Below are positions 8,740 through 51,690 of a DNA stretch of 64,000 nucleotides, piece after piece. The translations under genes and the position numbers were made by a program. Numbering within the stretch: position 1 is the first letter of the stretch; each line of letters begins with the position of its first letter. The notes under the pieces are model-generated. The model saw only the letters and a program-made list of their open reading frames with translations. It did not search any database and had not been told where the DNA came from. Source of the stretch: Lachnospiraceae bacterium P6B14 (GTDB lineage: Bacteria; Bacillota; Clostridia; Lachnospirales; Lachnospiraceae); contig JHWZ01000003.1 in the NCBI GenBank assembly GCA_000687695.1, positions 62,001 through 126,000 on the forward strand. The letters run 5' to 3'.

Positions 8740-8740
8740 C

Positions 8741-8976
8741 GGCTGCATAGGCGGTCGGTTATGATTTATCTGTGAAGGGACAGCCCTATCTCGGATGTTT
8801 TGATTGTCCGCGATGGCACGCTTTCGCTTTTTTCTCGACCGTCACGTTGCACGCACGGAAAAGACCCGTGCTGCGCAACGACGCTCGAGACACATCCATC
8901 GCGGTGACAATTCAAAGCCATCCTCGAAGGGCTTTGCCCTGCTTATGCAGCGAATCAAACCTGCCCTATTGTGGCC
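8741..8976 (-). repeat. Long covarying hairpin element, copy 1 (minus orientation)
   Basis: An intergenic imperfect palindrome. Its ends match copy 2 near rpmE: bases 8953-8976 are the exact reverse complement of 39491-39514, and 8746-8772 match the other end with one difference. Inside are nested stems: CGCGATGG/CCATCGCG, TCTCGA/TCGAGA, CGTTGC/GCAACG and an apical GCACGG/CCGTGC closing a 7-base loop (core 8833-8890). Short reading frames through it are structure artefacts. Confidence 0.8.
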
Positions 8977-9002
8977 TGTTGCTTGAAACAATTATTAAAA
9001 TA

Positions 9003-37757: not shown

Positions 37758-39242
37758 ATGGATTTAGAAAGCAAAACACTACAGGAACTCAGAGAGATGG
37801 CCAAGGAAAAGGGTATCGAAAAATACTCTTCCATGCGAAAGGCCGATCTGATAAAGAGGCTTGGCGGAGGCCAGGCTGCTCCTGCAACTGATAGCGCTAA
37901 AAATGACAAGCAGGAGACTAAGAAGCCTGAGAGAAAGCCCGCTCAGTCTGAGAAGCGTCATGAGAAGCCTGAGCAGCGTGACCAGCAGGCTGACCGCAGG
38001 CAGAACTATCATAACGGGAATACCAGAAGTCGTTATCATGACGGGTCTGACGGTGTGATCAGTGTTCAGAAGGAGAGGCAGATCGAGGAGGTAGCTCCAA
38101 CGGAGCTTAAGGATCTCGACAGTGGCATCACCAAAAACGGAATACTGGAGATCATGACAGAGGGATACGGTTTTATCCGTTGTGACAACTATCTTCCGGG
38201 TGAGGATGATGTATATGTATCGCCTCAGTTTATCCGCAGATTCGGTCTGCGTACGGGAGATATCATAACCGGTAATCTCCGTCGCAGAACTCAGAATGAA
38301 AAGTTTTCCGCACTTCTTTATATGAAGAAGGTTAACGGTCTGCCGACGAGCTATCTGTATGACAGAAAGAAGTTTGAAAACCTGACGCCGATCTTTCCGG
38401 ATGAGAGGATCAGACTTGAGACACCTGGAGCAGCTGTCTCCATGAGGATGCTGGATCTGATATCTCCGATAGGTAAGGGACAGCGTGGTATGATCGTGTC
38501 TCAGCCGAAGACGGGAAAGACGACGCTTATCAAGCAGGTCGCAAAGTCCGTCACGAAAAATCATCCCGATATGAAGATGATAATCCTTCTTATCGATGAG
38601 CGACCGGAGGAGGTTACTGACATCAAGGAGTCTATCGAGGGCAACCAGGTTGAGGTCATCTACTCGACCTTTGATGAGCTTCCTGAGAATCACAAACGTG
38701 TTTCCGAGATGGTCATTGAGCGTGCCAAGCGTCTCGTAGAGTGCGGAGAGGATGTTATGATCCTGCTTGATTCGATCACGAGACTTGCAAGAGCTTATAA
38801 CCTTACAGTCACTCCCAGCGGACGTACTCTTTCGGGTGGTCTGGATCCTGCAGCATTGCATATGCCGAAGAGATTTTTCGGTGCTGCGAGAAACATGCGT
38901 GAGGGTGGAAGTCTGACTATCCTTGCAACAGCGTTGGTTGATACCGGTAGCCGTATGGATGATGTCGTTTTCGAGGAGTTCAAGGGTACCGGTAACATGG
39001 AGCTTATGCTGGATAGGTCGTTGTCAGAGAAGAGGATATTCCCGGCGATCGATATCACGAAGTCGAGTACCAGACGTGAGGACCTGCTTTTGGATGAGGA
39101 GGAGCAGGAGTGCGTCGTGAAGATCAGAAGGATGCTCGGCGGGATGAGGCCGGATCAGGCCATGGAGCAGGTGATGGATATATTCAGACGTACGAAGGAC
39201 AATCGGGAATTTATCGAGATGGTCAAAAAGATCAGGGTTTGA
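37758..39242 (+). CDS. rho: Transcription termination factor Rho
   Basis: A 494-residue Rho. An N-terminal SAP-like helix ([25 protein letters not shown]) is followed by a polar, Lys/Arg/Gln-rich disordered insertion (about residues 45-100). Then come the cold-shock RNA-binding domain ([12 protein letters not shown]), the P-loop SQPKTGKTT and [12 protein letters not shown]. It is an RNA-dependent helicase that ends transcripts. ATG 37758 has ACGGAGG upstream. Its stop codon lies within the left arm of a 19-bp inverted repeat. Confidence 0.97.
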
Positions 39243-39250
39243 TTATTCAG

Positions 39251-39487
39251 TAGCATATGCTGCCTTATGAGATATCATCCACGGGCAACGGGCACGAGCT
39301 TATCGATTCACAGCACCTTTTGATAATCTTGGATGCCCCTGCGGAACTCGCTTGTTTCGTGCGCACTATGTGCTTCGAAACTACGCTCAAACAAGTCCTC
39401 GGGTCATCCATCAAAAGGCACTGTTTATCAGATAAGCTCGGCTAATGTTGCCCTTAGTATGATTCTCATATCGGCAGCAGCTTGCTA
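39251..39487. repeat. Giant hairpin 1 within the rho-rpmE unit
   Basis: Nested stems, outside to inside: TAGCA/TGCTA with GCTGCC/GGCAGC; TATGAGA/TCTCATA; GGGCAAC (39283) / GTTGCCC (39447); CGAGCTTATC (39295) / GATAAGCTCG (39431); CCTTTTGAT/ATCAAAAGG; GGATG/CATCC; CTTGTTT/AAACAAG near the apex. About 237 bases fold on themselves. I see no second copy of this arm in the window. Confidence 0.75.
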
Positions 39488-39490
39488 TCA

Positions 39491-39644
39491 GGCCACAATA
39501 GGGCAGGTTTGATTTATCGTGCGAGGGACCTCGGGAAAACGTCGGTGCGTAGGCGCCGTATTTTGGCGCCATGCACCGCTACGTTTTTCCATGACGCAAG
39601 TGGAGTCCCGAGCAGATAAATCACAACCGACCGCCTATGTGGCC
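39491..39644 (+). repeat. Long covarying hairpin element, copy 2
   Basis: The ends GGCCACA and TGTGGCC pair, as do GATTTATC/GATAAATC. The core (39533-39590) has an outer stem GGAAAACGT/ACGTTTTTCC, CGGTGC/GCACCG and an apical GGCGCC/GGCGCC around the loop GTATTTT. Both ends match copy 1 and the core matches copy 3. Confidence 0.85.
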
Positions 39645-39696
39645 GTACGTGATGCTACTGAATAATCAAAATTAGGGTTTTTTTTAAAAAAAGTGC

Positions 39697-39725
39697 TTGC
39701 ATTTTGTTTTTATATATGATAGAAT
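39697..39725 (+). promoter_or_regulatory. SigA-type promoter for rpmE with about 75-nt leader
   Basis: TTGCAT (39697-39702), 17-bp spacer, TAGAAT (39720-39725). The leader to 39807 contains GTCTTTTAAGAC and could hold an L31 autoregulatory structure, but I cannot recognise one. Confidence 0.65.
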
Positions 39726-39807
39726 AAGCAAGCGTTTGTATGAAAACACTGAAAATTCGTCTTTTAAGACTTGTTTTTACGTAAAGCAACATGTCAGGAG
39801 GTGTATC

Positions 39808-40008
39808 ATGAGAGAAGGAATTCATCCGGAGTACTACCAGGCAAAGGTAGTATGTAACTGCGGAAATGAATTTGTGACAGGCTCGACCAAGGAGGATATC
39901 CATGTCGAGGTTTGCTCAAAGTGCCATCCGTTCTATACAGGACAGCAGAAGGCTGCCCAGGCACGTGGCGCGATCGAGAAGTTCAACCGCAGATACGGCT
40001 TAAAATAG
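39808..40008 (+). CDS. rpmE: 50S ribosomal protein L31, zinc-binding form
   Basis: A 66-residue L31 with the four zinc-ligand cysteines (CNC at residues 16 and 18; [10 protein letters not shown] at 36 and 39), the C+ form rather than the zinc-independent paralogue. AGGAGG precedes ATG 39808. It is followed by a terminator, then the DUF1385-prmC-prfA genes, the standard Clostridia order. Confidence 0.97.
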
Positions 40009-40029
40009 CATAATATTACGAATACTCAG

Positions 40030-40060
40030 GAGACCAAGTTTATCTTGGTCTCTTTGTCTT
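40030..40060 (+). terminator. Rho-independent terminator after rpmE
   Basis: GAGACCAAG-TTTAT-CTTGGTCTC followed by TTTGTCTT. Confidence 0.75.
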
Positions 40061-40095
40061 ATTCTGTGGTTTTATTTGAAGAGAGGAGTATGCAC

Positions 40096-41283
40096 ATGGC
40101 TAAATACTCGGGAATCGGCGGACAGGCCGTGATAGAGGGCGTAATGATGAAGAACAAGGATAATTACGCCGTTGCAGTCAGAAAGCCTAACGGAGAGATC
40201 GAAGTCCAAAAGAAAAAGAGCACGAGCCTCAGGGACAGATACAAGGCTTTTGATCTTCCTATCATACGTGGTGTAGTGACTTTCATCGAGTCCTTTACTA
40301 TGGGAATGGGAGTACTTAACTACTCCGCGTCCTTTTATGAGGATGACGGCAAAAAGGACATGACTGAGGAAGAAAAGAAAAAAGCGGAGAAAAAGGAAAA
40401 TGTCCTTACCGTGCTCATCATGATCCTTGCCATAGTGCTTGCCATAGGTATTTTTGTGCTGGCACCTTTTTTTGCTATGGAAGCCCTGAAAAAGGTGATC
40501 CCTTCAGAGATGCTCAGAGGTTTTTTGGAGGGTGTTCTCAGAGTTGTGATCTTTATAGCATATGTAAAGCTTATCACACTGGTTGATGATATCAAAAGAC
40601 TTTTTATGTATCACGGTGCCGAGCACAAATCGATCAACTGTGTTGAGAATGGAGAGGACCTGACCGTCGAGAACGTGAGAAAGCAGTCTACCGAGCACAG
40701 ACGTTGCGGTACGAGCTTCCTTCTTTTCGTCATGGTGGTTTCAATCCTGTTTTTCATGTTTATCATAGTCGGAGCGGTATGGCTTCGTATGCTGTTAAGA
40801 ATACTTCTGATACCAGTGATAGCAGGTTTGTCATACGAGCTTATCCGTTTTCTTGGCAGTCATGAGGGAACGGCGGTATACATCATCTCCCGTCCGGGAA
40901 TGTGGCTGCAGAGGCTGACTACGGCTGAGCCTAACGATGATATGATCGCGGTGGCTATCGCGTCCGTAAACTCGGTATTTGACTGGAGAGAGTTCCAGGG
41001 CAAGGAGCCGCTTCCGAGTGAGATAGAGAGCGAGGAGGAGCCGGAAGAGGCTGCTTCTGAGGCGGACGAGACAGAGGATGCTGCTGCTGGTACTGCAGAA
41101 GGTGCTGCTGTTGCTACAGAAGCTGCCACTGGTACTACAGAGGATACAGTTGATGCGGCATCAGAGGATGCAGCAGATGGCGAATCGGTAATGAAGCATT
41201 CCGACATGCCGTGGGTAAAGGTGGCCGAGGAAGTTCTCAAGGGCGAGGCCGGTACAGAGGATATCGAAGTTGAAGACTTTTAA
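40096..41283 (+). CDS. DUF1385 (YqhQ-like) membrane protein
   Basis: A 395-residue protein of the DUF1385 family: GIGGQAVIEGVMMKN at the N-terminus, RGVVTFIES, MYHGAEHKSINCVENG and RRCGTSFLLFV, with about five TM segments between residues 100 and 265. The C-terminal roughly 80 residues are a low-complexity Ala/Glu/Thr tail not shared by the family core. ATG 40096 has GGAG seven bases before it. Function is unknown. It overlaps prmC by 14 bases and sits in the conserved rpmE-prmC-prfA neighbourhood. Confidence 0.9.
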   Translation: MAKYSGIGGQAVIEGVMMKNKDNYAVAVRKPNGEIEVQKKKSTSLRDRYKAFDLPIIRGVVTFIESFTMGMGVLNYSASFYEDDGKKDMTEEEKKKAEKKENVLTVLIMILAIVLAIGIFVLAPFFAMEALKKVIPSEMLRGFLEGVLRVVIFIAYVKLITLVDDIKRLFMYHGAEHKSINCVENGEDLTVENVRKQSTEHRRCGTSFLLFVMVVSILFFMFIIVGAVWLRMLLRILLIPVIAGLSYELIRFLGSHEGTAVYIISRPGMWLQRLTTAEPNDDMIAVAIASVNSVFDWREFQGKEPLPSEIESEEEPEEAASEADETEDAAAGTAEGAAVATEAATGTTEDTVDAASEDAADGESVMKHSDMPWVKVAEEVLKGEAGTEDIEVEDF

Positions 41284-42232
41284 TGAACTACTGAGTGAGA
41301 CGACTGAGGACCTAAGGCTGGCAGGGGTACCTGAGCCTGATCTGAACGCGTGGTATCTGATGGCGTGGTCGGTGGCTCTGAGTCATGAGGATAGTGATGA
41401 TAGAGCAGATGAGGTCGACTTTGTTCTGAGAATATCAGAGAGTATGCCGGATCGTTCATGGCTGCTGTTGCATGGTTCAGATGAAACATCCGAAAAAATA
41501 ACGAGCACATTATCTACGCTTGTAGAGCATAGAAAAAAGAGGGTTCCTCTGGAGTATATAACGCATATCACCGAGTTTATGGGACTGCCGATTTACGTAG
41601 ATCCTTCGGTACTGATCCCCCGACAGGACACGGAATGCGTGGTGGAGACCGCGCTGGATATCATGAAAAAGGAGTACTCCGAAAAGGGTGCGGATGTGCT
41701 TGATCTGTGCACCGGTTCGGGGTGTATCGCCATAAGTCTTGCGAAGCTGGGAAAAGCGAAGAGTGTGACCGCTACGGATAAGTCAGCTGAGGCGATCGGT
41801 GTAGCGAAGAAGAATGCAGGACTGAACGATGTGAATGTGAGATTCCTGCAGGGAGATATGTGGGGAGCGCTGACCGGTAAAGAGAATATAGGACGGTTGG
41901 ATGCAGACGAAACAGAGGCGCCAAAATTCGATCTGATAATAAGTAACCCACCGTATATCAGACATGATGTGATGCCTGAGCTTATGGAAGAGGTCAGGGA
42001 CTACGAGCCGGTGATGGCTTTGGACGGTGGTGAGGACGGACTTTTGTTCTACAGAAGTATCGTTGCGAGAGTCGGTACATTTTTGCGGAAGGGTGGTAGT
42101 CTGATCTTCGAGATAGGATATGATCAGGGCGAGGCTGTGGCCGGGCTTATGAGAGAGGCCGGGTTGGTTGATATAGAAGTGAAGAAGGATTATGCGGGGT
42201 GTGACAGAGTAGTAAGCGCTCGATTGATATGA
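41270..42232 (+). CDS. prmC: Release-factor glutamine methyltransferase PrmC
   Basis: A 320-residue SAM-dependent methyltransferase with the catalytic NPPY (ISNPPYIRHDVM), the SAM loop LDLCTGSGCIAISLA and PRQDTE in the middle. The N-terminal helical domain (FNELLSETTEDLRLAGV) requires the TTG start at 41270, inside the preceding gene, with GAGG upstream. It methylates the GGQ glutamine of release factors; its substrate gene prfA is next. Confidence 0.94.
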   Translation: MKTFNELLSETTEDLRLAGVPEPDLNAWYLMAWSVALSHEDSDDRADEVDFVLRISESMPDRSWLLLHGSDETSEKITSTLSTLVEHRKKRVPLEYITHITEFMGLPIYVDPSVLIPRQDTECVVETALDIMKKEYSEKGADVLDLCTGSGCIAISLAKLGKAKSVTATDKSAEAIGVAKKNAGLNDVNVRFLQGDMWGALTGKENIGRLDADETEAPKFDLIISNPPYIRHDVMPELMEEVRDYEPVMALDGGEDGLLFYRSIVARVGTFLRKGGSLIFEIGYDQGEAVAGLMREAGLVDIEVKKDYAGCDRVVSARLI

Positions 42233-42303
42233 TCTGTGAATCGAGCGGATGAAGGCTTGAAAAAGACCATGAAAAAAGATTTAAGTCATGGAGGATGATA
42301 AAA

Positions 42304-43374
42304 ATGTTTGAACATGTAGAGGATATTTCCTTACGATATGAAGAGGTGCTGGCTGAGCTGTCATCGCCTGAGGTGATGAACGATGCCGAGGTCTATCGAA
42401 TGAGGATGCAGGAGCAGGCTGAGCTAGAGCCAATCGTGATGAAGTATCGTGAGTATAAGGAAACCACCCGGGGCATCGAGGATTCGAAAATGATGCTCGA
42501 GGAGGAATCCGACGAGGAACTCAGGGAGATGGCGAAGGAGGAACTCTCCGAGCTGAAGGAACGTCTCGAGGTTATCGAAAAAGAGATGAAGATACTGCTT
42601 CTGCCAAAGGATCCCAATGACGATAAAAACGTCATCGTCGAGATCAGAGCGGGTGCGGGCGGTGATGAGGCGGCACTCTTTGCTGCCGATCTTTTCCGTA
42701 TGTACGCGAAGTACGCTGAGCGTGAACACTGGAAAGTGGATACGATGAACTCCAATGAAAACGGTATCGGCGGGTTCAAGGAAATCGTGTTTATGATAAA
42801 CGGCAACGGCGCCTATTCCAAGCTTAAATACGAGAGTGGCGTGCATCGTGTGCAGAGGATACCCGTGACCGAATCCGGCGGGAGGATCCACACTTCGACT
42901 GCTACTGTGGCGATCATGCCTGAGGTCGAGGATGTCGAGGTGGAGATCGATATGAACGACTGCAAATTTGACGTGTTCCGTGCGTCAGGAAACGGAGGAC
43001 AGTGCGTCAATACGACGGATTCGGCGGTCAGACTTACACATATCCCGTCAGGAATTGTCGTATCATGTCAGGATGAAAAATCCCAGTTGAAAAATAAAGA
43101 CAAAGCGCTGAAGGTACTGAGAGCCCGTCTGTATGAGCTGGAGCAGGAGAAGGCACACTCTGAGGAGGCGGAAAAACGCAGATCCCAGATAGGAACCGGA
43201 GACCGATCGGAGAAGATAAGGACGTACAATTTCCCTCAGGGAAGAGTTACCGATCACAGGATAAAGCTCACGCTCCATCAGCTGGACTCCGTTATAAACG
43301 GTGACCTTGACGAGGTTATAGACAGTCTGATCGCTGCGGACCAGAGCGCAAAACTTGCAAAGCTTGAGAATTGA
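42304..43374 (+). CDS. prfA: Peptide chain release factor 1
   Basis: A 356-residue class I release factor. [20 protein letters not shown] carries the GGQ that triggers peptide release, and the stop-codon recognition segment reads [18 protein letters not shown] (the PxT form typical of RF1, reading UAA/UAG). The Lys/Glu-rich N-terminal domain is normal. ATG 42304 has GGAGG nine bases upstream. Confidence 0.97.
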
Positions 43375-43399
43375 CTTAATCCGAAAAAAGGTGTAAAAT
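43371..43399 (+). promoter_or_regulatory. SigA-type promoter for the membrane EAL gene
   Basis: TTGACT (43371-43376, overlapping the prfA stop), 17-bp spacer, TAAAAT (43394-43399). Confidence 0.75.
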
Positions 43400-43436
43400 A
43401 ATATTCCGACCATTGAAGCGAAAGGAGGGACGGCCC

Positions 43437-45338
43437 ATGAATATAGAGATACAGTGTTGTGGTCTGGTTCTTATGATCATCATTTTGGTCATGAATATCC
43501 TGTCAGGGAAAGGGCGTCTCGTCCTCTATACATCGAAGCTCTTTGTTACGGTCCTCACCGTGTCGATCGTAGCCATCTGCTTTGATATCACCTCGATGGT
43601 TGCACTTTATTATATCAATGATATTCCCGAATGGGTGACTGCACTTGCATGTAAGGCGTATATTATCTGCCTGACATATGAGGCGACGTCGGCATTGATA
43701 TACTCGATGTATGATTGTTTCGCCTATAAGACGTACAGAAAGTTTGCTTATATTTTGCTCGGGATCGATGCGGCAGTCTCTGTCATCATAGCGTTTATTC
43801 CCATTTATTTCAATGTCACAGACCCCTCGCACGCCTTTACCGAGGGACCTGCGGTACTAATGACTTACGGTGCATGCCTGGCAGTGCTTTTTACAACGCT
43901 GCTTTTGTTGATCAGATACAGAAAAAGGATGAACGCTCAGCGTCATTCGGCAGTGCTTCTGTGGATGCTCAGCTGGGTAGTGGCAGCCGGGATACAGTTT
44001 TTCAATAACAGAGTTCTGCTGGTAGGATTTGCGACAGCGCTCGGAATGACGATCCTTTTTTCCGTGCTCGAGAATCCGATCGCAGGTATAGACCGTGTGA
44101 CAGGTGTATTCAATCTGCCCATGCTTCACGACTATATGAGCCAGGAGTTCAAAAGAGGCAAAAGGTTTTCTCTGATAAGTATTTCTCTTTCTTCACAGGC
44201 AGGTCTTATCGAGTCGGATCAGGAGTTAAGAGAGTCGCTTATCAGGTATTTCAAAGAGATCGCTCATGAGTTGGTATTCCGAAATACCAGATCGGGTGTC
44301 GTACTCGCGTTCAAGTATGGAAAACAGGATATCCCCTCGATAGTGAGCAGGATAAAATCCGATTTTATGTCTGATTGGAAATATGGTCCCAGAGGCGAAA
44401 AAACACATCTTTTAACACCGACATTTTTGATCATGGAAGACAGTGATGTTCTCGGTTCCGCAAGCGCCATTTTTGAGTATTCCAATTATGCATTTAATAC
44501 CAGTCCGGATACTGCCGGAACAGTGATATCTCTGGATGAAAACAAGATCAACGAAGCTGATGAATTTGAGAAAACAAAAAAAGAAATTGTCTCCGCAATG
44601 AAAGAGGACAGAGTTGTTGTTTTCTATCAGCCGATATGGTCAATAGAAGAGAACAGGTTCGTGTCTGCAGAGGCACTTGTCCGTATCAGAAAAAAGGATG
44701 GAAATATCCTTCCTCCGGGAGTGTTTATCCCTGTTGCCGAGGCTACGGGACATATCCTTGAACTCGGCCAGATAGTATTTGAAAAAGTATGTGGATTTAT
44801 CAAGAAAAATGATCCGAGAAAAATCGGTATCAATTATATAGAGGTAAACCTTTCCGTAAAACAGTGTGAGCAGAGAGAGCTTTCTGCGATGTACAGAGGT
44901 ATTATTAAAGGCTATGATATTGACCCTTCATATATCAACCTTGAGATCACCGAATCATCATCAATAGATATCAGACAGAATGTTATTGATAACATGAATG
45001 ACCTGATCAGATTCGGGCTTAATTTCTCTTTGGATGATTTTGGAAAAGGTAATTCAAACCTTGATTACATCATCGATATGCCGGTGGCTATCGTTAAGTT
45101 TGACAGGCAGATGGTACAGGCATATTTTTCATCAAATAACAAAGCTAAACATGTCATGAGTTCCATAGTAAAAATGGTCCATGATATGAACTTGAGAATA
45201 GTTGCCGAGGGAGTTGAGACCAAGGAAGAACTTGATGAATTAAAAGCGATGGAAGTGGAATATATTCAGGGATTCTATTTCTCGAAACCTATTCCCGAAG
45301 ATGAATTTTTATCATTTGTAAAGGAAAATAGTAAATAG
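43437..45338 (+). CDS. Membrane EAL-domain c-di-GMP phosphodiesterase with degenerate GGDEF
   Basis: A 633-residue protein. The first about 215 residues hold roughly seven TM segments. Next is a GGDEF-like region (about 218-370) lacking the GGDEF motif. The C-terminal EAL domain (about 385-630) has all catalytic motifs: SAEALVRI, VNLSVKQ, LEITESS, LDDFGKGNSN, IVKFD, AEGVE and QGFYFSKP. It should hydrolyse c-di-GMP, with the degenerate domain possibly sensing GTP. GGAGGG precedes ATG 43437. Confidence 0.9.
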   Translation: MNIEIQCCGLVLMIIILVMNILSGKGRLVLYTSKLFVTVLTVSIVAICFDITSMVALYYINDIPEWVTALACKAYIICLTYEATSALIYSMYDCFAYKTYRKFAYILLGIDAAVSVIIAFIPIYFNVTDPSHAFTEGPAVLMTYGACLAVLFTTLLLLIRYRKRMNAQRHSAVLLWMLSWVVAAGIQFFNNRVLLVGFATALGMTILFSVLENPIAGIDRVTGVFNLPMLHDYMSQEFKRGKRFSLISISLSSQAGLIESDQELRESLIRYFKEIAHELVFRNTRSGVVLAFKYGKQDIPSIVSRIKSDFMSDWKYGPRGEKTHLLTPTFLIMEDSDVLGSASAIFEYSNYAFNTSPDTAGTVISLDENKINEADEFEKTKKEIVSAMKEDRVVVFYQPIWSIEENRFVSAEALVRIRKKDGNILPPGVFIPVAEATGHILELGQIVFEKVCGFIKKNDPRKIGINYIEVNLSVKQCEQRELSAMYRGIIKGYDIDPSYINLEITESSSIDIRQNVIDNMNDLIRFGLNFSLDDFGKGNSNLDYIIDMPVAIVKFDRQMVQAYFSSNNKAKHVMSSIVKMVHDMNLRIVAEGVETKEELDELKAMEVEYIQGFYFSKPIPEDEFLSFVKENSK

Positions 45339-45365
45339 AGTAATATAACTCGAATGGAGGAAAAA

Positions 45366-45965
45366 ATGACTATCACATGTTTAGACTTGGAAGGTGTTTT
45401 GGTACCTGAGATCTGGATCGCTTTCGCCGAGGCTACGGGGCTTCCGGAGTTAAAGAGGACGACTAGGGACGAGCCTGACTACGATAAGCTGATGAAGTAT
45501 CGTATTGATATTTTACATAAAAACAATCTCGGATTAAAAGAGATTCAGGATACGATAGCAAAGATCGATCCGCTCCCGGGAGCAAAAGAGTTTCTCGATA
45601 AGCTGAGAGCCGAGTGTCAGGTGATCATCTTATCAGACACCTTTACACAGTTCGCCGGTCCTCTGATGGCGAAGCTCGGATATCCGACGATCTTCTGTAA
45701 CACTCTTGAGGTAGCGGATGACGGAACCATCACAGGATACAAAATGAGAGTCGAGAAGTCTAAATATGCAACGGTAAAGGCTCTGCAGTCAATCGGGTTC
45801 GATACGATCGCGAGCGGTGACAGCTTCAACGATCTCGGGATGATCGAAGCAAGCAAGGCAGGATTTTTATTCCGCTCGACAGAGGCGATACAGAAGGAAC
45901 ATCCGGAGCTGCCGGCGTATGAGGAGTACGATGAACTGCTCGCGGCAATACTGAAGGAAATATGA
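45366..45965 (+). CDS. thrH: ThrH-like HAD phosphatase (phosphoserine/homoserine)
   Basis: A 199-residue HAD-family protein beginning MTITCLDLEGVLVPEIWIAFAE, almost the textbook ThrH start, with ILSDTFTQF and GDSFNDLGMI supplying the other HAD motifs. In Pseudomonas ThrH has phosphoserine phosphatase and phosphoserine:homoserine phosphotransferase activity; either is possible here. ATG 45366 has GGAGG five bases upstream. A terminator follows at once. Confidence 0.88.
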   Translation: MTITCLDLEGVLVPEIWIAFAEATGLPELKRTTRDEPDYDKLMKYRIDILHKNNLGLKEIQDTIAKIDPLPGAKEFLDKLRAECQVIILSDTFTQFAGPLMAKLGYPTIFCNTLEVADDGTITGYKMRVEKSKYATVKALQSIGFDTIASGDSFNDLGMIEASKAGFLFRSTEAIQKEHPELPAYEEYDELLAAILKEI

Positions 45966-45996
45966 TAAAAAGCCTTGCGAAAGCAGGGCTTTTTTT
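45966..45996 (+). terminator. Rho-independent terminator after thrH
   Basis: AAAAAGCCTTGC-GAAA-GCAGGGC-TTTTTTT. Confidence 0.85.
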
Positions 45997-46020
45997 GGGT
46001 AAGAAGGAGCAAAGAGTGCT

Positions 46021-46908
46021 GTGAGATTTTTTAGAAAGAACCGTGAAGGATATATAGAAAAAAAGACGCTGATTATCGTACTGCTCATCGTGTGCGTGCT
46101 CATTTTGGGAGAGGCGATATTCCTCTTTGCAATATCGCGAAAGGGTTCGACGCCTGAGCAAACGATAGTGGAGGCGACGGAAGCGCCAACGCCGGAGCCG
46201 ACACCTGAGGATCAGGCCGCCTTCAATCCTGCTGATGATGCAGAAGAAGAGCCAACATCGACCCCTGAGGATGAAGGTAACGGTTTTATGGTGGCAATCG
46301 ATGCCGGTCATCAGAGTCACGGAAACAGCGACACAGAGCCGGTTGGTCCGGGCTCATCCACGAAAAAAGCAAAGGTTTCTGACGGGGCGACGGGATGTTC
46401 CACGGGGGTTCCCGAGTACAAGCTGAATCTCGATGTGGCGAAAAAACTTGAGAGTGAGTTGGTACGCCGGGGCTACAAGGTTTACATGATCCGAAAGAAA
46501 AATGATGTCAACATCTCAAATGTAGAAAGAGCGCAGGCGGCAAACGACAGCGGAGCAGATATCTGCATCCGACTTCACGCTGACGGAGTAGATGACGGCA
46601 GCGCCAGGGGTGCGAGCGCGCTTCATCATTCCGCGGACAATCCGTACAATCCGGAGCTCAGTAAAAAATCAAAGAAGCTGTCTCAGTGTGTTCTCGACGC
46701 GTATTGTGCATTGACCGGGTTTAAAAATCGAGGCCTTTCGGAGAGAGATGATCTGACAGGTACAAACTGGAGTGAGATACCGGTAACACTTTTGGAGATG
46801 GGCTTTATGAGCAACGCGTCCGAGGATGAAAAAATGCAGGATGTCGATTTTCAGTATACTATGGCAAAGGGAATAGCAGATGGTATAGATGCTTATTTCG
46901 GCATCTAA
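46021..46908 (+). CDS. N-acetylmuramoyl-L-alanine amidase (Amidase_3), membrane-anchored
   Basis: A 295-residue protein with one N-terminal TM (about residues 18-40), a Pro/Glu/Thr-rich linker (about 42-85) and an Amidase_3 domain. The zinc ligands sit in IDAGHQ, VPEYKLNL and IRLHADG, and the catalytic Glu in LLEMGFMSN. It cleaves the bond between MurNAc and L-Ala in peptidoglycan outside the cell. The start is GTG 46021, with AAGGAG somewhat distant; no better start is visible. Confidence 0.9.
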   Translation: MRFFRKNREGYIEKKTLIIVLLIVCVLILGEAIFLFAISRKGSTPEQTIVEATEAPTPEPTPEDQAAFNPADDAEEEPTSTPEDEGNGFMVAIDAGHQSHGNSDTEPVGPGSSTKKAKVSDGATGCSTGVPEYKLNLDVAKKLESELVRRGYKVYMIRKKNDVNISNVERAQAANDSGADICIRLHADGVDDGSARGASALHHSADNPYNPELSKKSKKLSQCVLDAYCALTGFKNRGLSERDDLTGTNWSEIPVTLLEMGFMSNASEDEKMQDVDFQYTMAKGIADGIDAYFGI

Positions 46909-46924
46909 AAAATGAGGGGAAAAG

Positions 46925-48913
46925 ATGAAAAAAAGACTAGCTTGTTTTATATCCGTTATGATGGTGTCGGTGATGACACTTTCGGCGTGCGGTTCAGATG
47001 GTATCATCGAGTTTAATCCGGATGCTCCTGCGGACGAAAAAGTATCGGAAGCAGAGGAACAGGAAGAAAAAAGCGACGGAAGCTGGGCTGTATACTGGTA
47101 CCTCTGCGGGTCGGATCTGGAGTCGGAGTACGGATGCGCGACGGACGACATGAATGAAATGATGAGCGTGAAGCTTCCGGAAAATGTAAAGTTCGTTATC
47201 CAGACCGGAGGGGCCTCCACATGGCAAAACGAGGTTATAAGCGGTAAAAAGATCGGTCGTTATGAGTATTCTGGAGAGGAACTGACGCAGATAGAAGAGA
47301 TAAAGCAGGCAAATATGGGAAAGAGCTCCACACTCAGCGACTTCCTTTCCTTCTGCAACGAGAACTATCCTGCCGATCACAAGATAGTCCTGTTTTGGGA
47401 TCACGGTGGCGGGTCCACAATGGGTGTTGCCCAGGATGAAAACTTTGATCTGGATATGCTGTCTTTACCGGAGATGAGAAAGGCATTTGAGGAGACCTGT
47501 GAGGTCAGCGCGGAGAATCCGCCATATGACATGGTGGCGTTTGATACCTGTCTGATGGCGACTGTCGACGTCGCGAATATTTTTAAGGATGTAGCGAAAT
47601 ACCTGGTCGCAAGTGAGGAGACCGAGCCTGAAATCGGATGGAGTTATGACGGTTGGATACAGGCTTTGGCGGATGATACTACGATCTCACTTCCCGAGCT
47701 CGGGAAGGTTATCTGTGATACATATTATAAGGCTTGTGAGGAGAGAGATTATGATGACGAGGCTACATTGTCAGTGACTGATCTTTCAAAGACCGATACG
47801 CTACTGGCGGCCTATAATAAGCTTGGTGATGAGGCGCTGGTCAACGTGGTAAGCGACGAATCTTTTGCGGGTAAGTTTTCGCGTGCAGCGAAGAAAACGG
47901 AAAACTACGGCGGCAATACAAAGAACAGCGGATACTCGGACATGGCTGACATGGGGGATCTCGTGAAGCATGCGAAGGAAATACTTCCGAACAGTTCGCA
48001 GGAGGTTTTGGATGCGATTAAGGATGCTGTGGTCTATCAGGTAAAAGGAAAGTTCAAGTCGCATGCGAACGGGCTTTCATGCTACATCAGCTACTCCAAC
48101 GACAAAGATAAGCTGAAGGATTACATAAAAGCATCCGGAACAGAGGCGTTTAACCATTTTTATACCTACAAGGTAACTGACGATCTGAGCCAAAAAGGTT
48201 ACGAGTACGTGTCCGCTCTTCTGGGCGGCGAGGACTTCGAAATAGAGGAGCATTTCGACATCAGCTCACTCGAGGACAAGGCATTAAAAATAGTCGACGG
48301 CAGCACTGCCGTATTAAAGATCGGCAAGAAAAATGCCGAGCAGTTGGCTGATGTAAGCTACGAACTTCTCATGGCGCTCGATGACGGTGAGACATTCGTG
48401 AGCCTCGGGGCAGCGGGAACTCCGGATGATATTGATGCCGACTGGGAAAAGGGTATTTTTAAGGACAATTTCAGAGGCATGTGGGGAGCCATCGACGGCA
48501 ATCTGGTCTTCATGGAGCTGGTAGTTTGCAACGATGATTATACACTGTATCAGGTTCCGATCAAGTTAAACGGTGAGGAGACATTTTTAGCGGTTGCATG
48601 TGACAACGCGTCACATGAGTTCGCGATACTGGGAGCGCATGATGAGCTGGAACACGGAGTCGCGCCGAAGTCTGTTACAAAGCTTAAGGCCGGAGATAAG
48701 GTGACACCGATACTTTTTATGATGAATAAGGATGATGTTCAGGAGTTCGAGATGGACACATTTAAGGTGACGGAGGATACGACCTTTGCGGAGGAGGAGC
48801 TTGGTGACGGCAAATACGCGATCCTATTCGAGATGACGGGGACGGATGGGAAGTACGCCATGTCGGATGTGGAAGTATTTGAGGTCAAAAACGGCGTGAT
48901 GGAATATCTGTGA
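46925..48913 (+). CDS. Clostripain-family (C11) cysteine peptidase lipoprotein
   Basis: A 662-residue secreted protein. The signal peptide ends in a lipobox (LSACGSD), so it is probably lipid-anchored. The catalytic dyad is visible: His in VLFWDHGGGS and Cys in VAFDTCLMA, the arrangement of C11 peptidases, which cut after Arg/Lys or act in processing. The C-terminal half (about residues 420-662) is beta-rich and not recognised. It follows the amidase gene by 16 bases, probably in one operon. Confidence 0.9.
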   Translation: MKKRLACFISVMMVSVMTLSACGSDGIIEFNPDAPADEKVSEAEEQEEKSDGSWAVYWYLCGSDLESEYGCATDDMNEMMSVKLPENVKFVIQTGGASTWQNEVISGKKIGRYEYSGEELTQIEEIKQANMGKSSTLSDFLSFCNENYPADHKIVLFWDHGGGSTMGVAQDENFDLDMLSLPEMRKAFEETCEVSAENPPYDMVAFDTCLMATVDVANIFKDVAKYLVASEETEPEIGWSYDGWIQALADDTTISLPELGKVICDTYYKACEERDYDDEATLSVTDLSKTDTLLAAYNKLGDEALVNVVSDESFAGKFSRAAKKTENYGGNTKNSGYSDMADMGDLVKHAKEILPNSSQEVLDAIKDAVVYQVKGKFKSHANGLSCYISYSNDKDKLKDYIKASGTEAFNHFYTYKVTDDLSQKGYEYVSALLGGEDFEIEEHFDISSLEDKALKIVDGSTAVLKIGKKNAEQLADVSYELLMALDDGETFVSLGAAGTPDDIDADWEKGIFKDNFRGMWGAIDGNLVFMELVVCNDDYTLYQVPIKLNGEETFLAVACDNASHEFAILGAHDELEHGVAPKSVTKLKAGDKVTPILFMMNKDDVQEFEMDTFKVTEDTTFAEEELGDGKYAILFEMTGTDGKYAMSDVEVFEVKNGVMEYL

Positions 48914-48940
48914 AAATAGTGTGAAAAATGAGATTTTTGC

Positions 48941-48969
48941 TTGCATAATACGAGAGTGTGTGGTATAGT
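48941..48969 (+). promoter_or_regulatory. SigA-type promoter for the small gene at 49031
   Basis: TTGCAT (48941-48946), 17-bp spacer, TATAGT (48964-48969). Confidence 0.7.
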
Positions 48970-49030
48970 TAGGGTGGAACTATAGGCAGGTCATGGATGA
49001 CCTAAGTACAATATCAAAGGAGTGATAGCT

Positions 49031-49360
49031 ATGGGACATGGAATGGATATCAGCTCACTGAATACGTTTAATCCGACCTCTGCTTTGTTCAGTTCGTCGA
49101 ACAGTGCATTGAAGAACTCTTCGAACAGTTGGATGACGGGACTCACTGATCTGAAGATGATCCAGAGCGGAACTTACAAAAGAGCTTTGCATAGTGTTTA
49201 TGACAAGCAGGATAAGGATACAGTAAAGAAGTCTGTATCGGATGCTATCTCGACAGATGCCGAGAAAACTATTCAGAGCTGGAAGGATGACGAGTTGGAT
49301 GCAAAAGAGATCGCTCGTCAGCTCAATTCGGCAGGCAGCAATTTTAACGAGCTGTTCTAG
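49031..49360 (+). CDS. Uncharacterised 109-residue soluble protein
   Basis: A small Ser/Asn-rich protein without signal peptide, TM or known motif: an N-terminal low-complexity region (about residues 1-35) then a helical part (LKMIQSGTYKRALHSVYDKQ...NSAGSNFNELF). It has its own good promoter, AAAGGAG before ATG 49031 and a strong stem-loop after it, so it is a real monocistronic gene. Function unknown. Confidence 0.75.
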   Translation: MGHGMDISSLNTFNPTSALFSSSNSALKNSSNSWMTGLTDLKMIQSGTYKRALHSVYDKQDKDTVKKSVSDAISTDAEKTIQSWKDDELDAKEIARQLNSAGSNFNELF

Positions 49361-49411
49361 CCTACATCTCTGCGGAACCGTAAACCGGGAGGAAAGTTTT
49401 TGAAACCTAGA

Positions 49412-49440
49412 TGTGAGGGCGCGTTTCTTACGCGCCCTCA
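49412..49440 (+). terminator. GC-rich stem-loop after the small gene
   Basis: TGAGGGCGCGT-TTCTT-ACGCGCCCTCA, very stable but without a T-run, so it may be an RNA-stabilising end or an imperfect terminator. Confidence 0.5.
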
Positions 49441-49460
49441 TGTAGCGTTCGGAGAGTATT

Positions 49461-50255
49461 ATGAGACGAGTTTTTGTACCGCCCGAGCAGGTCGGAGACG
49501 GACAGATCACCATTTACGGTGATGATGTCAAGCATATGCGGGATGTCCTTCGGATGAAGGAGGGGGATCATATCACCGCGACCTGTGGCCGTGGCACCGA
49601 CTATCACTGCGAGATATCGAAGATAGCGGATGACGAGATCACATTGTCCGTAATCGATCAGGAAGCAGATGCCTCGGAGCTTCCCGTAAGGATCAGCCTC
49701 TATCAGGCGCTCCCAAAGGGGGACAAGTTAGAACTTGTGATCCAAAAGGCGGTTGAACTCGGCGTGTACGAGGTGATCCCTGTGCGTACCGTCAGATGCG
49801 TCGTAAAGCTCGATGATGCCAAGGCTGCAAAAAAGCAGGCCCGCTGGCAAAAGATATCCGAGGAAGCAGCCAAGCAGAGCGGCAGGGGGATAGTCCCGGA
49901 GGTTCTGCCTGTGATGGATTTTAAGGACGCGTTAAAAAGGGCGTCAGCCTGCGAACATGTACTGATACCTTATGAGCTGTGTGATGACTACTCACTGACA
50001 GACAGATTGCGCGAGAGTATATGTGGAAAACCAGAGGGTCCTGATAAGCATGACGGAGCGGGTTCATCGGAAAAGAGTATAGCAGTATTCATCGGATCCG
50101 AGGGCGGATTTGAAAGAAGCGAGGTTGAACTCGTAAAGGAAAACGGTGGCGAGGAGATCTCACTCGGCCACAGGATACTTCGCACGGAGACAGCTGCCAT
50201 CGCAGTGCTTGCACACCTGATGTTGACCATAGAGGCGGCGGGCGTGAGTGTATGA
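49461..50255 (+). CDS. rsmE: 16S rRNA m3U1498 methyltransferase RsmE
   Basis: A 264-residue SPOUT methyltransferase: the N-terminal PUA-like domain (MRRVFVPPEQ...HMRDVLRMKEGD) and the knotted catalytic core with FIGSEGGFERSEVE and SLGHRILRTETAAIAVL. It methylates N3 of U1498 in 16S rRNA. A polar insertion (about residues 190-210) enlarges it slightly. The gene stands about 60 bases before the cysteine desulfurase. Confidence 0.95.
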   Translation: MRRVFVPPEQVGDGQITIYGDDVKHMRDVLRMKEGDHITATCGRGTDYHCEISKIADDEITLSVIDQEADASELPVRISLYQALPKGDKLELVIQKAVELGVYEVIPVRTVRCVVKLDDAKAAKKQARWQKISEEAAKQSGRGIVPEVLPVMDFKDALKRASACEHVLIPYELCDDYSLTDRLRESICGKPEGPDKHDGAGSSEKSIAVFIGSEGGFERSEVELVKENGGEEISLGHRILRTETAAIAVLAHLMLTIEAAGVSV

Positions 50256-50316
50256 AGCAGATAAGGTTATAAATCAGAAAAACAGAAAAGAATAGTTTTT
50301 GGGGTTTGAGAAACAA

Positions 50317-51486
50317 ATGGAAGCATATTTAGACAACGCGGCAACGACCAGAGTGCTGCTCGAGGTAGCTGAACTGGTTAAAAAGGTGATGACGGAGGAT
50401 TATGGAAATCCGTCATCGCTCCATACAAAGGGCTTTGCCGCTGAGCAGTATATCCGCGGGGCTTTGGATGATATATCACGCACACTGAAGGTGGATCCGT
50501 CGACCATTGTGTTTACTTCAGGCGGTACGGAGAGCAACAATCAGGCGCTCATCGGTTCAGCACTTGCCAACAAAAGAAGAGGCAAGCATATCATAACCAC
50601 GGCATTTGAGCACGCTTCCGTAGCGGAGCCTCTTATCTATCTCGAGCAGATGGGCTTCGAAGTGACATTTTTACCGGTTGAGAGTGACGGAAAAGTATCA
50701 CCGGAAACACTGAAGGATGCTCTCAGGAATGATACCATCTTGGTTTCAGTCATGATGGTAAACAATGAGATCGGAGTAGTGCAGGATCTGCAGACTCTGG
50801 TAAAGATTGTAAAATCATATAACCCCGAGATCATTTTTCATACGGATGCCATACAGGCATATGGAAAGCTGGAACTGCATCCGAAAAAACTCGGAGTCGA
50901 CTTGATGAGCGTGAGCGGTCACAAGCTTCATGGTCCGAAGGGTACGGGATTTCTTTATATCGCTGAGGCAAACACGAAACTTCACCCGTATATTCATGGC
51001 GGACATCAGCAAAAGAATCGTCGTTCGGGAACCGAAAACGTTCCCGGTATAGCAGGACTCGGTATGGCTGCGCAGCTTGCCTATGATGATTATCAGTATA
51101 AATATAAAAACGTTTCCGAGCTTAGTGAAGATTTCATTCGTGATCTGAAAAAGATCGAAGGTGTGGTCATAAACGCCAGACCGGAGGGTAAGTCGAAAAC
51201 GGAGTTCAGCCCGTATATCATCAGTGCCGGTATCGAAGGGATCAAGTCGGAGGTGCTGTTACATGCGCTTGAAGATAAGGGTGTTTATGTTTCATCAGGA
51301 TCTGCCTGTTCCTCGAACCATCCCGGTTTAAGTGACACGTTAAGTGCTATCGGTGTCGACAAATCGTTGCTTGATTCGACCATACGCTTCAGTCTCTCGC
51401 GATTTACCACCCGCGAGGAGATAGACTACACCATTGCCAGTTTGCAGACCTTGCTGCCGACGCTTCGGCGGTTTACCAAGAGGTGA
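50317..51486 (+). CDS. Cysteine desulfurase (NifS/IscS family), ThiI partner
   Basis: A 389-residue PLP enzyme: YLDNAATTRV, the PLP-Lys in SVSGHKLHGPKGTGFLYI, HGGHQQKNRRSGTEN and the sulfur-carrying Cys in SSGSACSSNHPG. It passes sulfur from cysteine to acceptors. Position just upstream of thiI suggests the NifZ role of feeding sulfur for tRNA 4-thiouridine. The start ATG 50317 has a weak site (GGGG at -20 to -17). Confidence 0.93.
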   Translation: MEAYLDNAATTRVLLEVAELVKKVMTEDYGNPSSLHTKGFAAEQYIRGALDDISRTLKVDPSTIVFTSGGTESNNQALIGSALANKRRGKHIITTAFEHASVAEPLIYLEQMGFEVTFLPVESDGKVSPETLKDALRNDTILVSVMMVNNEIGVVQDLQTLVKIVKSYNPEIIFHTDAIQAYGKLELHPKKLGVDLMSVSGHKLHGPKGTGFLYIAEANTKLHPYIHGGHQQKNRRSGTENVPGIAGLGMAAQLAYDDYQYKYKNVSELSEDFIRDLKKIEGVVINARPEGKSKTEFSPYIISAGIEGIKSEVLLHALEDKGVYVSSGSACSSNHPGLSDTLSAIGVDKSLLDSTIRFSLSRFTTREEIDYTIASLQTLLPTLRRFTKR

Positions 51487-51564
51487 CGAGACACATCCCT
51501 CACTGGACATGTTTAAACTACCCTCGCGCGACAGATAACCAAGATAGTATACAGCCGCGCGAGG
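51486..51564. repeat. Inverted repeats abutting hairpin copy 3
   Basis: CCTCGCGCG (51522-51530) pairs with CGCGCGAGG (51556-51564). Bases 51486-51501 (ACGAGACACATCCCTC) are nearly the reverse complement of 51583-51597 inside copy 3, so the two pairings compete. GAGACACATCC also occurs in copy 1, suggesting a truncated, oppositely oriented copy. Confidence 0.6.
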
Positions 51565-51690
51565 ACAGTTTGGTTTTCCAACGAGGGATGTGTCGTAAGC
51601 GTCGGTGCGTAGGCAGCGTATTTTGCTGCCATGCACCGCTACGCTTACGAAAAAAGCGAAAGCGTGCCCGAGTGGAAACCAAAGCTGTCC
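51563..51690 (+). repeat. Long covarying hairpin element, copy 3
   Basis: Outer arms GGACAG-TTTGG-TTTCCA and TGGAAACCAAAG-CTGTCC pair. The core (51593-51650) has TCGTAAGCGT/ACGCTTACGA, CGGTGC/GCACCG and an apical GGCAGC/GCTGCC around GTATTTT. It shares the unpaired strings GATGTGTC and AAAAAAGCGAAAGCGTGCC with copy 1. Confidence 0.85.

What the first reader, a model, noticed from the sequence alone, without database searches (positions are those of the whole stretch)
39491..51690. Hairpin family whose three copies covary in sequence but keep one fold
Cores at 8833-8890 (minus), 39533-39590 and 51593-51650 share one architecture: outer stem, invariant CGT/ACG pairs, a 6-bp stem, a small internal loop (GTA or GCA opposite AT or GT), a 6-bp apical stem and a 7-nt loop GTNTTTT. 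The apical stems are GGCGCC/GGCGCC, GGCAGC/GCTGCC and GCACGG/CCGTGC; the middle stem is CGGTGC/GCACCG or CGTTGC/GCAACG; outer stems are also different yet complementary. Multiple compensatory changes among only three copies mean the fold itself is selected or is regenerated by the copying mechanism. It fits either a dispersed structured RNA or a single-strand-folded mobile palindrome. I cannot match it to a family I know.
Basis: seen in the sequence. Interest (0 to 1): 0.82.

Follow-up and report, generated by a model that had tools for sequence, protein, structure and literature searches.

The report
Mobile nested hairpin repeat, REP-like
The three hairpins belong to a repeat, absent from the standard RNA-family library, that this bacterium carries at about sixty places, mostly just behind genes; its stems differ from copy to copy but stay matched, apparently because whole hairpin pieces are exchanged together, and this matters because matched changes of this kind are normally read as proof of a working RNA.

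Summary
The three cores are copies of one structured repeat. A covariance model finds 65 copies in the window's 2.69-Mb genome, hits in 19 of 39 genomes of the genus and in 8 further genera of the same family. Rfam has no match. A tree-aware test finds 13 of 22 helix pairs covarying significantly and no others.

It is best described as a REP-like mobile palindrome: a core of about 110 nt plus matched outer arms. Near-identical 158-bp units sit at unrelated loci. The two window copies tested are absent from several relatives. One core lies in the loop of a hairpin that is a plain terminator in a relative. It fails three defining features of the described REP superfamilies, including a Y1 transposase.

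Covariation is block-like: helices reassort as whole modules, and inner hairpins can be replaced en bloc at orthologous sites. GNRA loops, tandem G.A mismatches, plus-strand stability and an excess of G.T over A.C among clean mismatches indicate that the plus-strand fold matters. Whether as RNA or single-stranded DNA, and what moves it, remain unknown.

The parts
39489..39646 (+). Complete mobile unit of the 'family A' form, 158 bp, CAGGCC...GGCCGT, between the rho gene and the ribosomal protein L31 gene
   Evidence: Of 14 family-A candidates 13 could be located: 158 bp in 8, 157 in 1, 176 in 2 (mini-hairpin in loop), 240 in 2 (nested core); a 99% identical copy lies on contig C14; genes.
39514..39625 (+). 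Core matched by covariance model R1 (type 1: tandem G.A, GNRA side hairpin, P3-P4-P5)
   Evidence: 111.8 bits, E 4e-33.
51574..51687 (+). Core of the second copy (type 2), between a class-V aminotransferase gene and thiI
   Evidence: 103.2 bits; gene families; outer arms 51563-51690 pair by eye.
8796..8909 (-). Core of the third copy (type 2), nested inside family-A outer arms
   Evidence: 94.7 bits; near-identical inner part at G000 C3:14864.
8739..8978 (-). Composite 240-bp unit: family-A ends around a type-2 core
   Evidence: Inverted repeats I2 and I4 against the 39.5-kb copy; unit length 240; same composite in relative G061 at another site.
39295..39440 (.). Copy of a second palindrome family of the same design, in the same insertion complex
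   Evidence: Junction motif also in G061 and G008 at another locus and at one more place in the own genome.
39238..39256 (+). Left arm of a 19-nt perfect inverted repeat enclosing both palindromes; contains the rho stop codon (39240-39242)
   Evidence: Repeat I23; sequence; kept in G061 with a short insertion before the right arm.
39652..39670 (+). Right arm of the same 19-nt inverted repeat
   Evidence: Repeat I23.

Best explanation
It is a REP-like mobile extragenic palindrome of Lachnospiraceae. Shown: dispersed copies, presence/absence among relatives, placement beside stop codons, a conserved multi-helix fold, and helices that differ between copies as whole modules. Inferred: the plus strand, folded as single-stranded DNA (or as RNA), is what the unknown mobility machinery recognises, so copies with a broken fold neither spread nor persist. 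New copies settle behind stop codons and sometimes in the loop of an existing hairpin such as a terminator, whose stem then becomes the outer arms. Inner hairpins are later overwritten from the centre outward by other copies, for example when a broken hairpin tip is repaired from an ectopic copy. That replaces both arms of a helix at once and gives covariation with few wobble intermediates.
For: Copy number: 65 in G000; 19 of 39 genomes of the genus, up to 64; 13 of 246 genomes of the order, all in one family. Near-identical units with sharp ends at unrelated loci. At the rho locus 8 of 11 relatives read (of 37 relatives with a hit) have no palindrome between the rho stop and the next gene's upstream sequence. 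At thiI, 3 relatives have 5-12 nt there, G061 has 55 nt without a core, G011 and G015 carry their own copies, G002 and G022 could not be placed. A core in a terminator loop in G061 where G000 has the bare hairpin (direction of change not polarised). Mini-hairpin present or absent in the apical loop of orthologues. Inner-block swaps with unchanged outer arms: L014/L063, L182/L061. Adjusted mutual information 0.95-1.00 between the two sides of a helix, 0.16-0.46 between helices. Arms pair in 142 of 144 distinct copies. Plus strand: GNRA in 88 of 89 copies with four kinds of paired closing stem; more stable in 54 of 63 copies; isolated G.T against A.C mismatches 37:14, p 0.002. Constraint: 7 of 13 orthologous pairs keep 97-100% identity while sequence beyond 150 nt is 74-95% identical. 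Placement: paired arm within 23 nt of an antisense gene's stop in 32 of 43 cases against 7 of 26 for sense genes.
Against: No mobilising gene was found; only Y1 transposase (PF01797) was searched, and 3 of 19 element carriers have it (G034, G030, G013) against 7 of 20 non-carriers. No target-site duplication. Only one clean case of a core in a hairpin loop that exists without it. Resident copies are more conserved than a purely selfish repeat needs, though near flanks (31-150 nt) are also fairly conserved, 76-97%. Unfiltered arm mismatches in G000 show no G.T excess (22 G.T, 34 A.C), and terminator-like hairpins show a similar bias to the filtered one (16:8). Centre-out conversion rests on two clear swaps. 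One-sided exchange also occurs (L081), and so does a single-pair compensatory change (L183/L138).
Confidence: 0.62

Rival explanations
1. A dispersed functional RNA (trans-acting or a 3'-end mRNA element) that spread by duplication; the fold is kept because the plus-strand RNA works.
For: GNRA tetraloop and tandem G.A motifs on one strand; G.T more frequent than A.C among clean mismatches; plus strand more stable; 7 of 13 orthologous pairs more conserved than sequence 151-1000 nt away.
Against: Wobble pairs are about 0.5% of pairs (1.0% in unfiltered G000 arms) against 19 of 213 in ten tRNAs of the same material. In 36 of 63 placements the plus strand is antisense to both flanking genes, so the sense mRNA would carry the less stable strand. 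No Rfam family. GNRA loops are stable in DNA as well (passage of PMC8794818). Whole-module swaps would be unusual for an RNA gene.
Confidence: 0.25
2. Intrinsic terminators, or a bidirectional terminator family.
For: Position just 3' of stop codons, 1 of 63 copies between divergent genes, one core inside a terminator.
Against: A T-run within 15 nt of the arms in only 5 of 63 copies; separate terminator-like hairpins remain nearby at L016 and L002; conserved bulges and a GNRA side hairpin are not needed for termination.
Confidence: 0.05
3. A true GTAG- or CGTC-tagged REP moved by a RAYT transposase.
For: Same placement, stem diversity, inverted doublets and occurrence within palindromes as described for REPs (PMC3733652).
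Against: No Y1_Tnp hit in G000, G061 or G002, the three genomes with most copies scored; CGYC lies inside paired helices, not as an unpaired end tag; the paired span is 127-208 nt, not 20-40.
Confidence: 0.05
4. Complementarity is made mainly by template switching within each palindrome (arm copied from arm). This is not exclusive of the best explanation, so the odds do not add to one.
For: Mechanism proposed to create and mend stems (PMC8794818 abstract and passages); double changes with few intermediates; one single-pair compensatory change between orthologues.
Against: It should tend to erase the one-sided bulges and internal loops that nearly all aligned copies keep. No loop inversion was seen, but the sets were gathered by loop orientation. 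A swapped inner module recurs in another copy of the same genome (C4:174907 and C15:44714, by eye).
Confidence: 0.15

Closest known systems
REP / BIME / REPIN elements (GTAG and CGTC superfamilies, RAYT-associated)
   Same: Dispersed intergenic palindromes, mostly close to the 3' end of ORFs, few between divergent genes, stems and loops differing by complementary changes, dimers, in some species inside longer palindromes (PMC3733652: sections 6, 7, 15 and part 1 of 17 read; passages).
   Different: Much longer and many-helixed, no unpaired terminal tag, no Y1 transposase in the richest carriers, G.T pairing rare, in Lachnospiraceae.
Larger bacterial palindromic repeats such as ERIC, YPAL, RUP, NEMIS, Bcr1 (listed in PMC2267715, passages only)
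   Same: Short intergenic or partly intergenic repeats, many predicted to fold.
   Different: Here stems are almost free in sequence and mainly junctions, bulges and loops are conserved. Direct sequence comparison with them was not run.
Palindromic candidate RNAs of human microbiomes (PMC8040213, passages only)
   Same: Covarying palindromic motifs; the authors note that some may be REP sequences.
   Different: Most (230 of 250) were predicted terminators; whether any of their motifs matches this element was not checked.
Double-hairpin and repetitive hairpin-forming elements of mitochondrial genomes (search listings and abstract starts only)
   Same: Families of mobile hairpin-forming repeats.
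   Different: Organelle genomes; no sequence or structure relation tested.
Template-switch-generated hairpins (Monttinen and Loytynoja 2022, PMC8794818; abstract and passages)
   Same: A DNA-level process that can create perfect stems and multi-base compensatory changes.
   Different: Studied there as local mutation in RNA genes, not as exchange of helix modules in a dispersed repeat family.

Membership tests
REP superfamilies (GTAG/CGTC) | Small palindrome, 20-40 bp | tested here: not met
   Paired span median 158 nt, range 127-208, in 63 copies.
REP superfamilies (GTAG/CGTC) | Unpaired terminal GTAG or CGTC tag | tested here: not met
   The CG[T/C]C stretch is conserved but its bases are helix-paired; the GTAG-like stretch before P5 varies to GCAG together with its partner.
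REP superfamilies (GTAG/CGTC) | Associated RAYT (Y1_Tnp) gene (GTAG type) | tested here: not met
   PF01797: no hit in G000, G061, G002, G015, G022, G023; 10 of 39 genus genomes have it, 3 of them element carriers.
REP superfamilies (GTAG/CGTC) | Intergenic, close to the 3' end of ORFs, rare between divergent genes | tested here: met
   1 divergent of 63; stop-codon adjacency; ORF calls were crude.
MITE | Terminal inverted repeats | tested here: met
   Ends GGCCAC/GTGGCC or close variants in the 13 located family-A units; the whole unit is palindromic.
MITE | Target-site duplication | tested here: not met
   Direct repeats at 13 units no longer than with swapped flanks (p 0.85).
MITE | Parent transposon with the same ends | not tested
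   Only PF01797 was searched.
Intrinsic terminator | T-tract after the hairpin | tested here: not met
   5 of 63 copies.
Rfam 15 families | Score at or above the gathering threshold | tested here: not met
   Window: only a tRNA. 12 loci at E<=1: an S10 leader and a group II intron away from the element; on the element only mir-71 twice at 25 bits, gathering score 50.
Integron attC site | Paired R/L core sites and an integron integrase | not tested
   No conserved GTTRRRY-type core noticed by eye (consensus recalled); no integrase search.

The most novel reading that the evidence does not exclude
A Russian-doll mobile DNA: palindromes that spread by entering the loops of other hairpins (terminators, each other, even their own apical loop) and that trade whole helices from the centre outward, so that strong covariation, normally the gold standard for a conserved RNA, is produced by DNA exchange and the palindrome's own mobility.
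Probability: 0.3. Interest if true: 0.82.

Novelty: new variant of a known kind. Interest (0 to 1): 0.58.

Why it matters
Covariation is routinely taken as evidence of a functional RNA. Here a repeat family with strong tree-aware covariation differs between copies by whole helix modules and moves between loci, so it is a natural test case for separating RNA selection from DNA-level production of matched stems (wobble share, G.T against A.C, module linkage). It also extends REP-like biology, with docking behind stop codons, to Lachnospiraceae, where no Y1 transposase was found in the richest carriers. The covariance model can be used to annotate copies across the family.

Tried and rejected
Two hand-written DNA patterns for the core were out of register and found nothing; they say nothing about the repeat.

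My first count of mismatch types suggested that G.T is no commoner than A.C: 6 and 8 in 71 cores, 22 and 34 in G000 arms. I took this at first as evidence against a single-strand fold. Many of those arm mismatches lie in poorly aligned arm ends; restricted to mismatches flanked by three Watson-Crick pairs on both sides the result is 19 G.T and 6 A.C, and in 147 distinct cores 18 and 8. Of the 8 core A.C cells, 4 sit at one pair beside an internal loop; they are counted. Two columns that are not helix pairs were dropped.

Rfam, phage, plasmid and viral-contig searches gave nothing for the element. Target-site duplication was tested and not seen. Family-A flanks are slightly palindromic (p 0.013, n 13), too weak to claim hairpin targeting. 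The L005/L059 and G061 rho differences look like deletions through short direct repeats, not empty sites. The L002 locus gave no clean empty site. With left and right arms swapped between copies, 22 of 63 still score 8 or more because P2 is partly shared (62 of 63 with true partners; medians 7 and 17.5).

Rows dropped: of 149 pattern matches 82 passed a fold-energy filter, 75 were kept as non-redundant with enough flank, and 4 of these lacking the architecture were removed by hand before A1. At least one real copy (in L073) fell just under the energy cut. Two of the 65 G000 hits lay outside held loci and were left out of context counts.
Full report
OBSERVATION. They fold far better than shuffled sequence and are the only strong window matches of a covariance model built from 71 copies that include these three. 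BLAST with a 172-nt stretch around the 39.5-kb copy found 33 matches at E<=0.01 in the window's own genome, G000. The covariance model found 65 at E<=0.01, with 150 of 336 first-look candidates scored.

DISTRIBUTION. The model hits 19 of 39 genomes of the genus at E<=1e-6, with 97 candidates scored per genome: 64 copies in G000, 58 in G061, 53 in G002, and none in 20 genomes. In an even sample of 246 genomes of the order 13 are hit at E<=1e-4, all in the same family; this is 9 of 116 genera including the own one, with stricter filters and 15 candidates scored per genome, and one of the genera rests on a single weak hit. An exact core pattern run over the 84,980-species collection gave 51 stretches in eight MAGs titled Lachnospiraceae, Eubacterium or Clostridiales, several of them from rumen. 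It gave none in viral contigs, and blastn of the 172-nt stretch found none in phage or plasmid records. Rfam has no matching family.

ANATOMY, plus strand. There are freely variable matched outer arms. P2 follows, often with a tandem G.A / A.G pair (type 1) or fully paired (type 2). P3 and P4 are separated by a two-base bulge on the 3' side; then come an internal loop, a six-pair P5, and the loop GTNTTTT. On the 3' side there is a two-pair side hairpin with a GNRA loop. GNRA holds in 88 of 89 distinct copies of one set and 68 of 71 of the other (the sets overlap), with closing stems GC/GC, GT/AC, AC/GT and CC/GG and one unpaired. In two orthologous pairs the loop itself changed and stayed within GNRA (GCAA/GAAA, GCAA/GCGA). 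Many copies carry an extra perfect mini-hairpin (GGAAACTC..GAGTTTCC type) inside the apical loop, and an orthologous pair with and without it is seen (L183/L138).

COVARIATION. On 71 copies 96.7% of the cells of 22 pairs are standard pairs, with 370 double changes (shuffles 109) and a covariation score of 0.61 (0.165 in shuffles, at most 0.147 when slid). A tree-based null that I wrote gives 13 of 22 helix pairs significant and no other pair among 6786. A1 was gathered with a pattern that fixes parts of P4 and the loop and with a fold-energy filter, and A2 and A3 were fitted to the model, so all sets lean towards paired copies; the outer arms and the side hairpin were neither in the pattern nor in the energy window, except for bases next to P3. 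Outer arms pair in 142 of 144 distinct copies with enough flank, with 4177 Watson-Crick pairs.

HOW THE STEMS CHANGE. In 147 distinct copies the two sides of a helix predict each other almost fully (adjusted mutual information 0.95-0.96; 0.97-1.00 in 58 G000 copies), while neighbouring helices do so weakly (0.22 for P3-P5, 0.46 for P3-P4). One P3 type in G000 occurs in 11 copies with eight different P5 stems. Thirteen orthologous pairs were found among the loci at hand (not a random sample; one G000 element is used twice). In 7 the element is 97-100% identical while sequence 151-1000 nt away is 74-95% identical and near flanks are 76-97%. In 6 it has changed, 68-85%: two clear inner-block swaps with the same outer arms (L014/L063; L182/L061), one loop insertion with arm changes (L183/L138), one one-sided recombinant (L109/L081), and two that I did not resolve. 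So resident copies look constrained and can change by blocks. Repair of a break at the hairpin tip from another copy would give centre-out blocks; that step is inferred.

WHICH STRAND. Isolated mismatches are 19 G.T and 6 A.C in the arms and 18 and 8 in the core, pooled p 0.002; without the filter the G000 arms have 22 and 34, and 57 terminator-like hairpins have 16 and 8. The plus strand is more stable in 54 of 63 copies with RNA parameters and 51 of 63 with DNA parameters. Together this favours a single-stranded plus-strand fold. Wobble is however rare, about 0.5% of pairs against 19 of 213 in ten tRNAs. GNRA loops are stable in DNA too (passage in PMC8794818). RNA and ssDNA cannot be told apart here.

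MOBILITY. The family-A unit has fixed ends, 158 bp in 8 of 13 located copies, the rest being 157, 176 (extra mini-hairpin) or 240 (nested core), at unrelated loci. At the rho locus, where the 39.5-kb copy sits before the gene for ribosomal protein L31, 37 relatives have a hit to the rho gene and 11 were read: eight have no palindrome between the rho stop codon and the promoter-like sequence of the next gene (judged by eye), G061 has the same palindrome complex with the unit collapsed to 30 bp, probably by deletion between short repeats, and G002 and G015 carry other palindromes. The same collapsed form stands elsewhere in G000 (L027). At the thiI locus G008, G026 and G007 have 5-12 nt of intergenic sequence, G061 has 55 nt without a core, G011 and G015 have their own copies, and G002 and G022 could not be placed. 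In one case G061 carries a core inside the loop of a hairpin that in G000 is a plain terminator-like stem; which state is older was not determined.

PLACEMENT. Of 63 G000 copies 36 lie between two genes antisense to the plus strand, 15 between two sense genes, 8 between convergent genes, 1 between divergent genes and 3 could not be classed (crude ORF calls). The paired arm lies within 23 nt of the stop codon for 32 of 43 antisense neighbours and 7 of 26 sense ones. Only 5 of 63 have a T-run beside the arms. Window neighbours are rho, L31, a class-V aminotransferase, thiI, a PF00144 protein and an amidase.

COMPARISON. REP families described in PMC3733652 share placement, stem diversity by complementary change, dimers and occurrence within palindromes (sections 6, 7, 15 and part 1 of 17 read). 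REPs within 15 nt of a stop codon are reported to stall ribosomes (passages of PMC12306157). Size, lack of an unpaired tag and absence of Y1_Tnp from the richest carriers exclude membership of the described superfamilies, not the analogy. My paper searches (open-access library only) listed no description of this family; I cannot say that none exists.

VERDICT. A REP-like repeat family, unusually elaborate and not in Rfam, whose covariation is real, is tied to the plus-strand fold, and is probably produced largely by module exchange. Function, if any, is probably at gene 3' ends, but this is untested. The odds given are those of the first version; no corrected fact required changing them.

Noticed in passing
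window 39295-39440; also loci L195 and L198, and G000 C12:46213: A second palindrome family of the same design (junction GGACYTGTYTGARCGWAG, variable matched arms); two pattern matches in the own genome and further ones in two relatives.
   Followed up: partly
window 39238-39256 and 39652-39670: A 19-nt perfect inverted repeat encloses both palindromes; its left arm includes the rho stop codon.
   Followed up: partly
apical loops of G000 copies, e.g. L183, L187, L190: A perfect mini-hairpin of about 20 nt (GGAAACTCGAAGAGTTTCC type) sits inside apical loops and a related one in the side-hairpin loop of L014; it may be a mobile hairpin of its own.
   Followed up: partly
L014, L017, L022, L075, L088, L104: Pairs of copies in inverted orientation with core edges 71-148 nt apart, like REP dimers.
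   Followed up: no
L081:1494-1605: One-sided recombinant of two copies: P5 matched, P3 mispaired, outer arms not paired (score 8).
   Followed up: no
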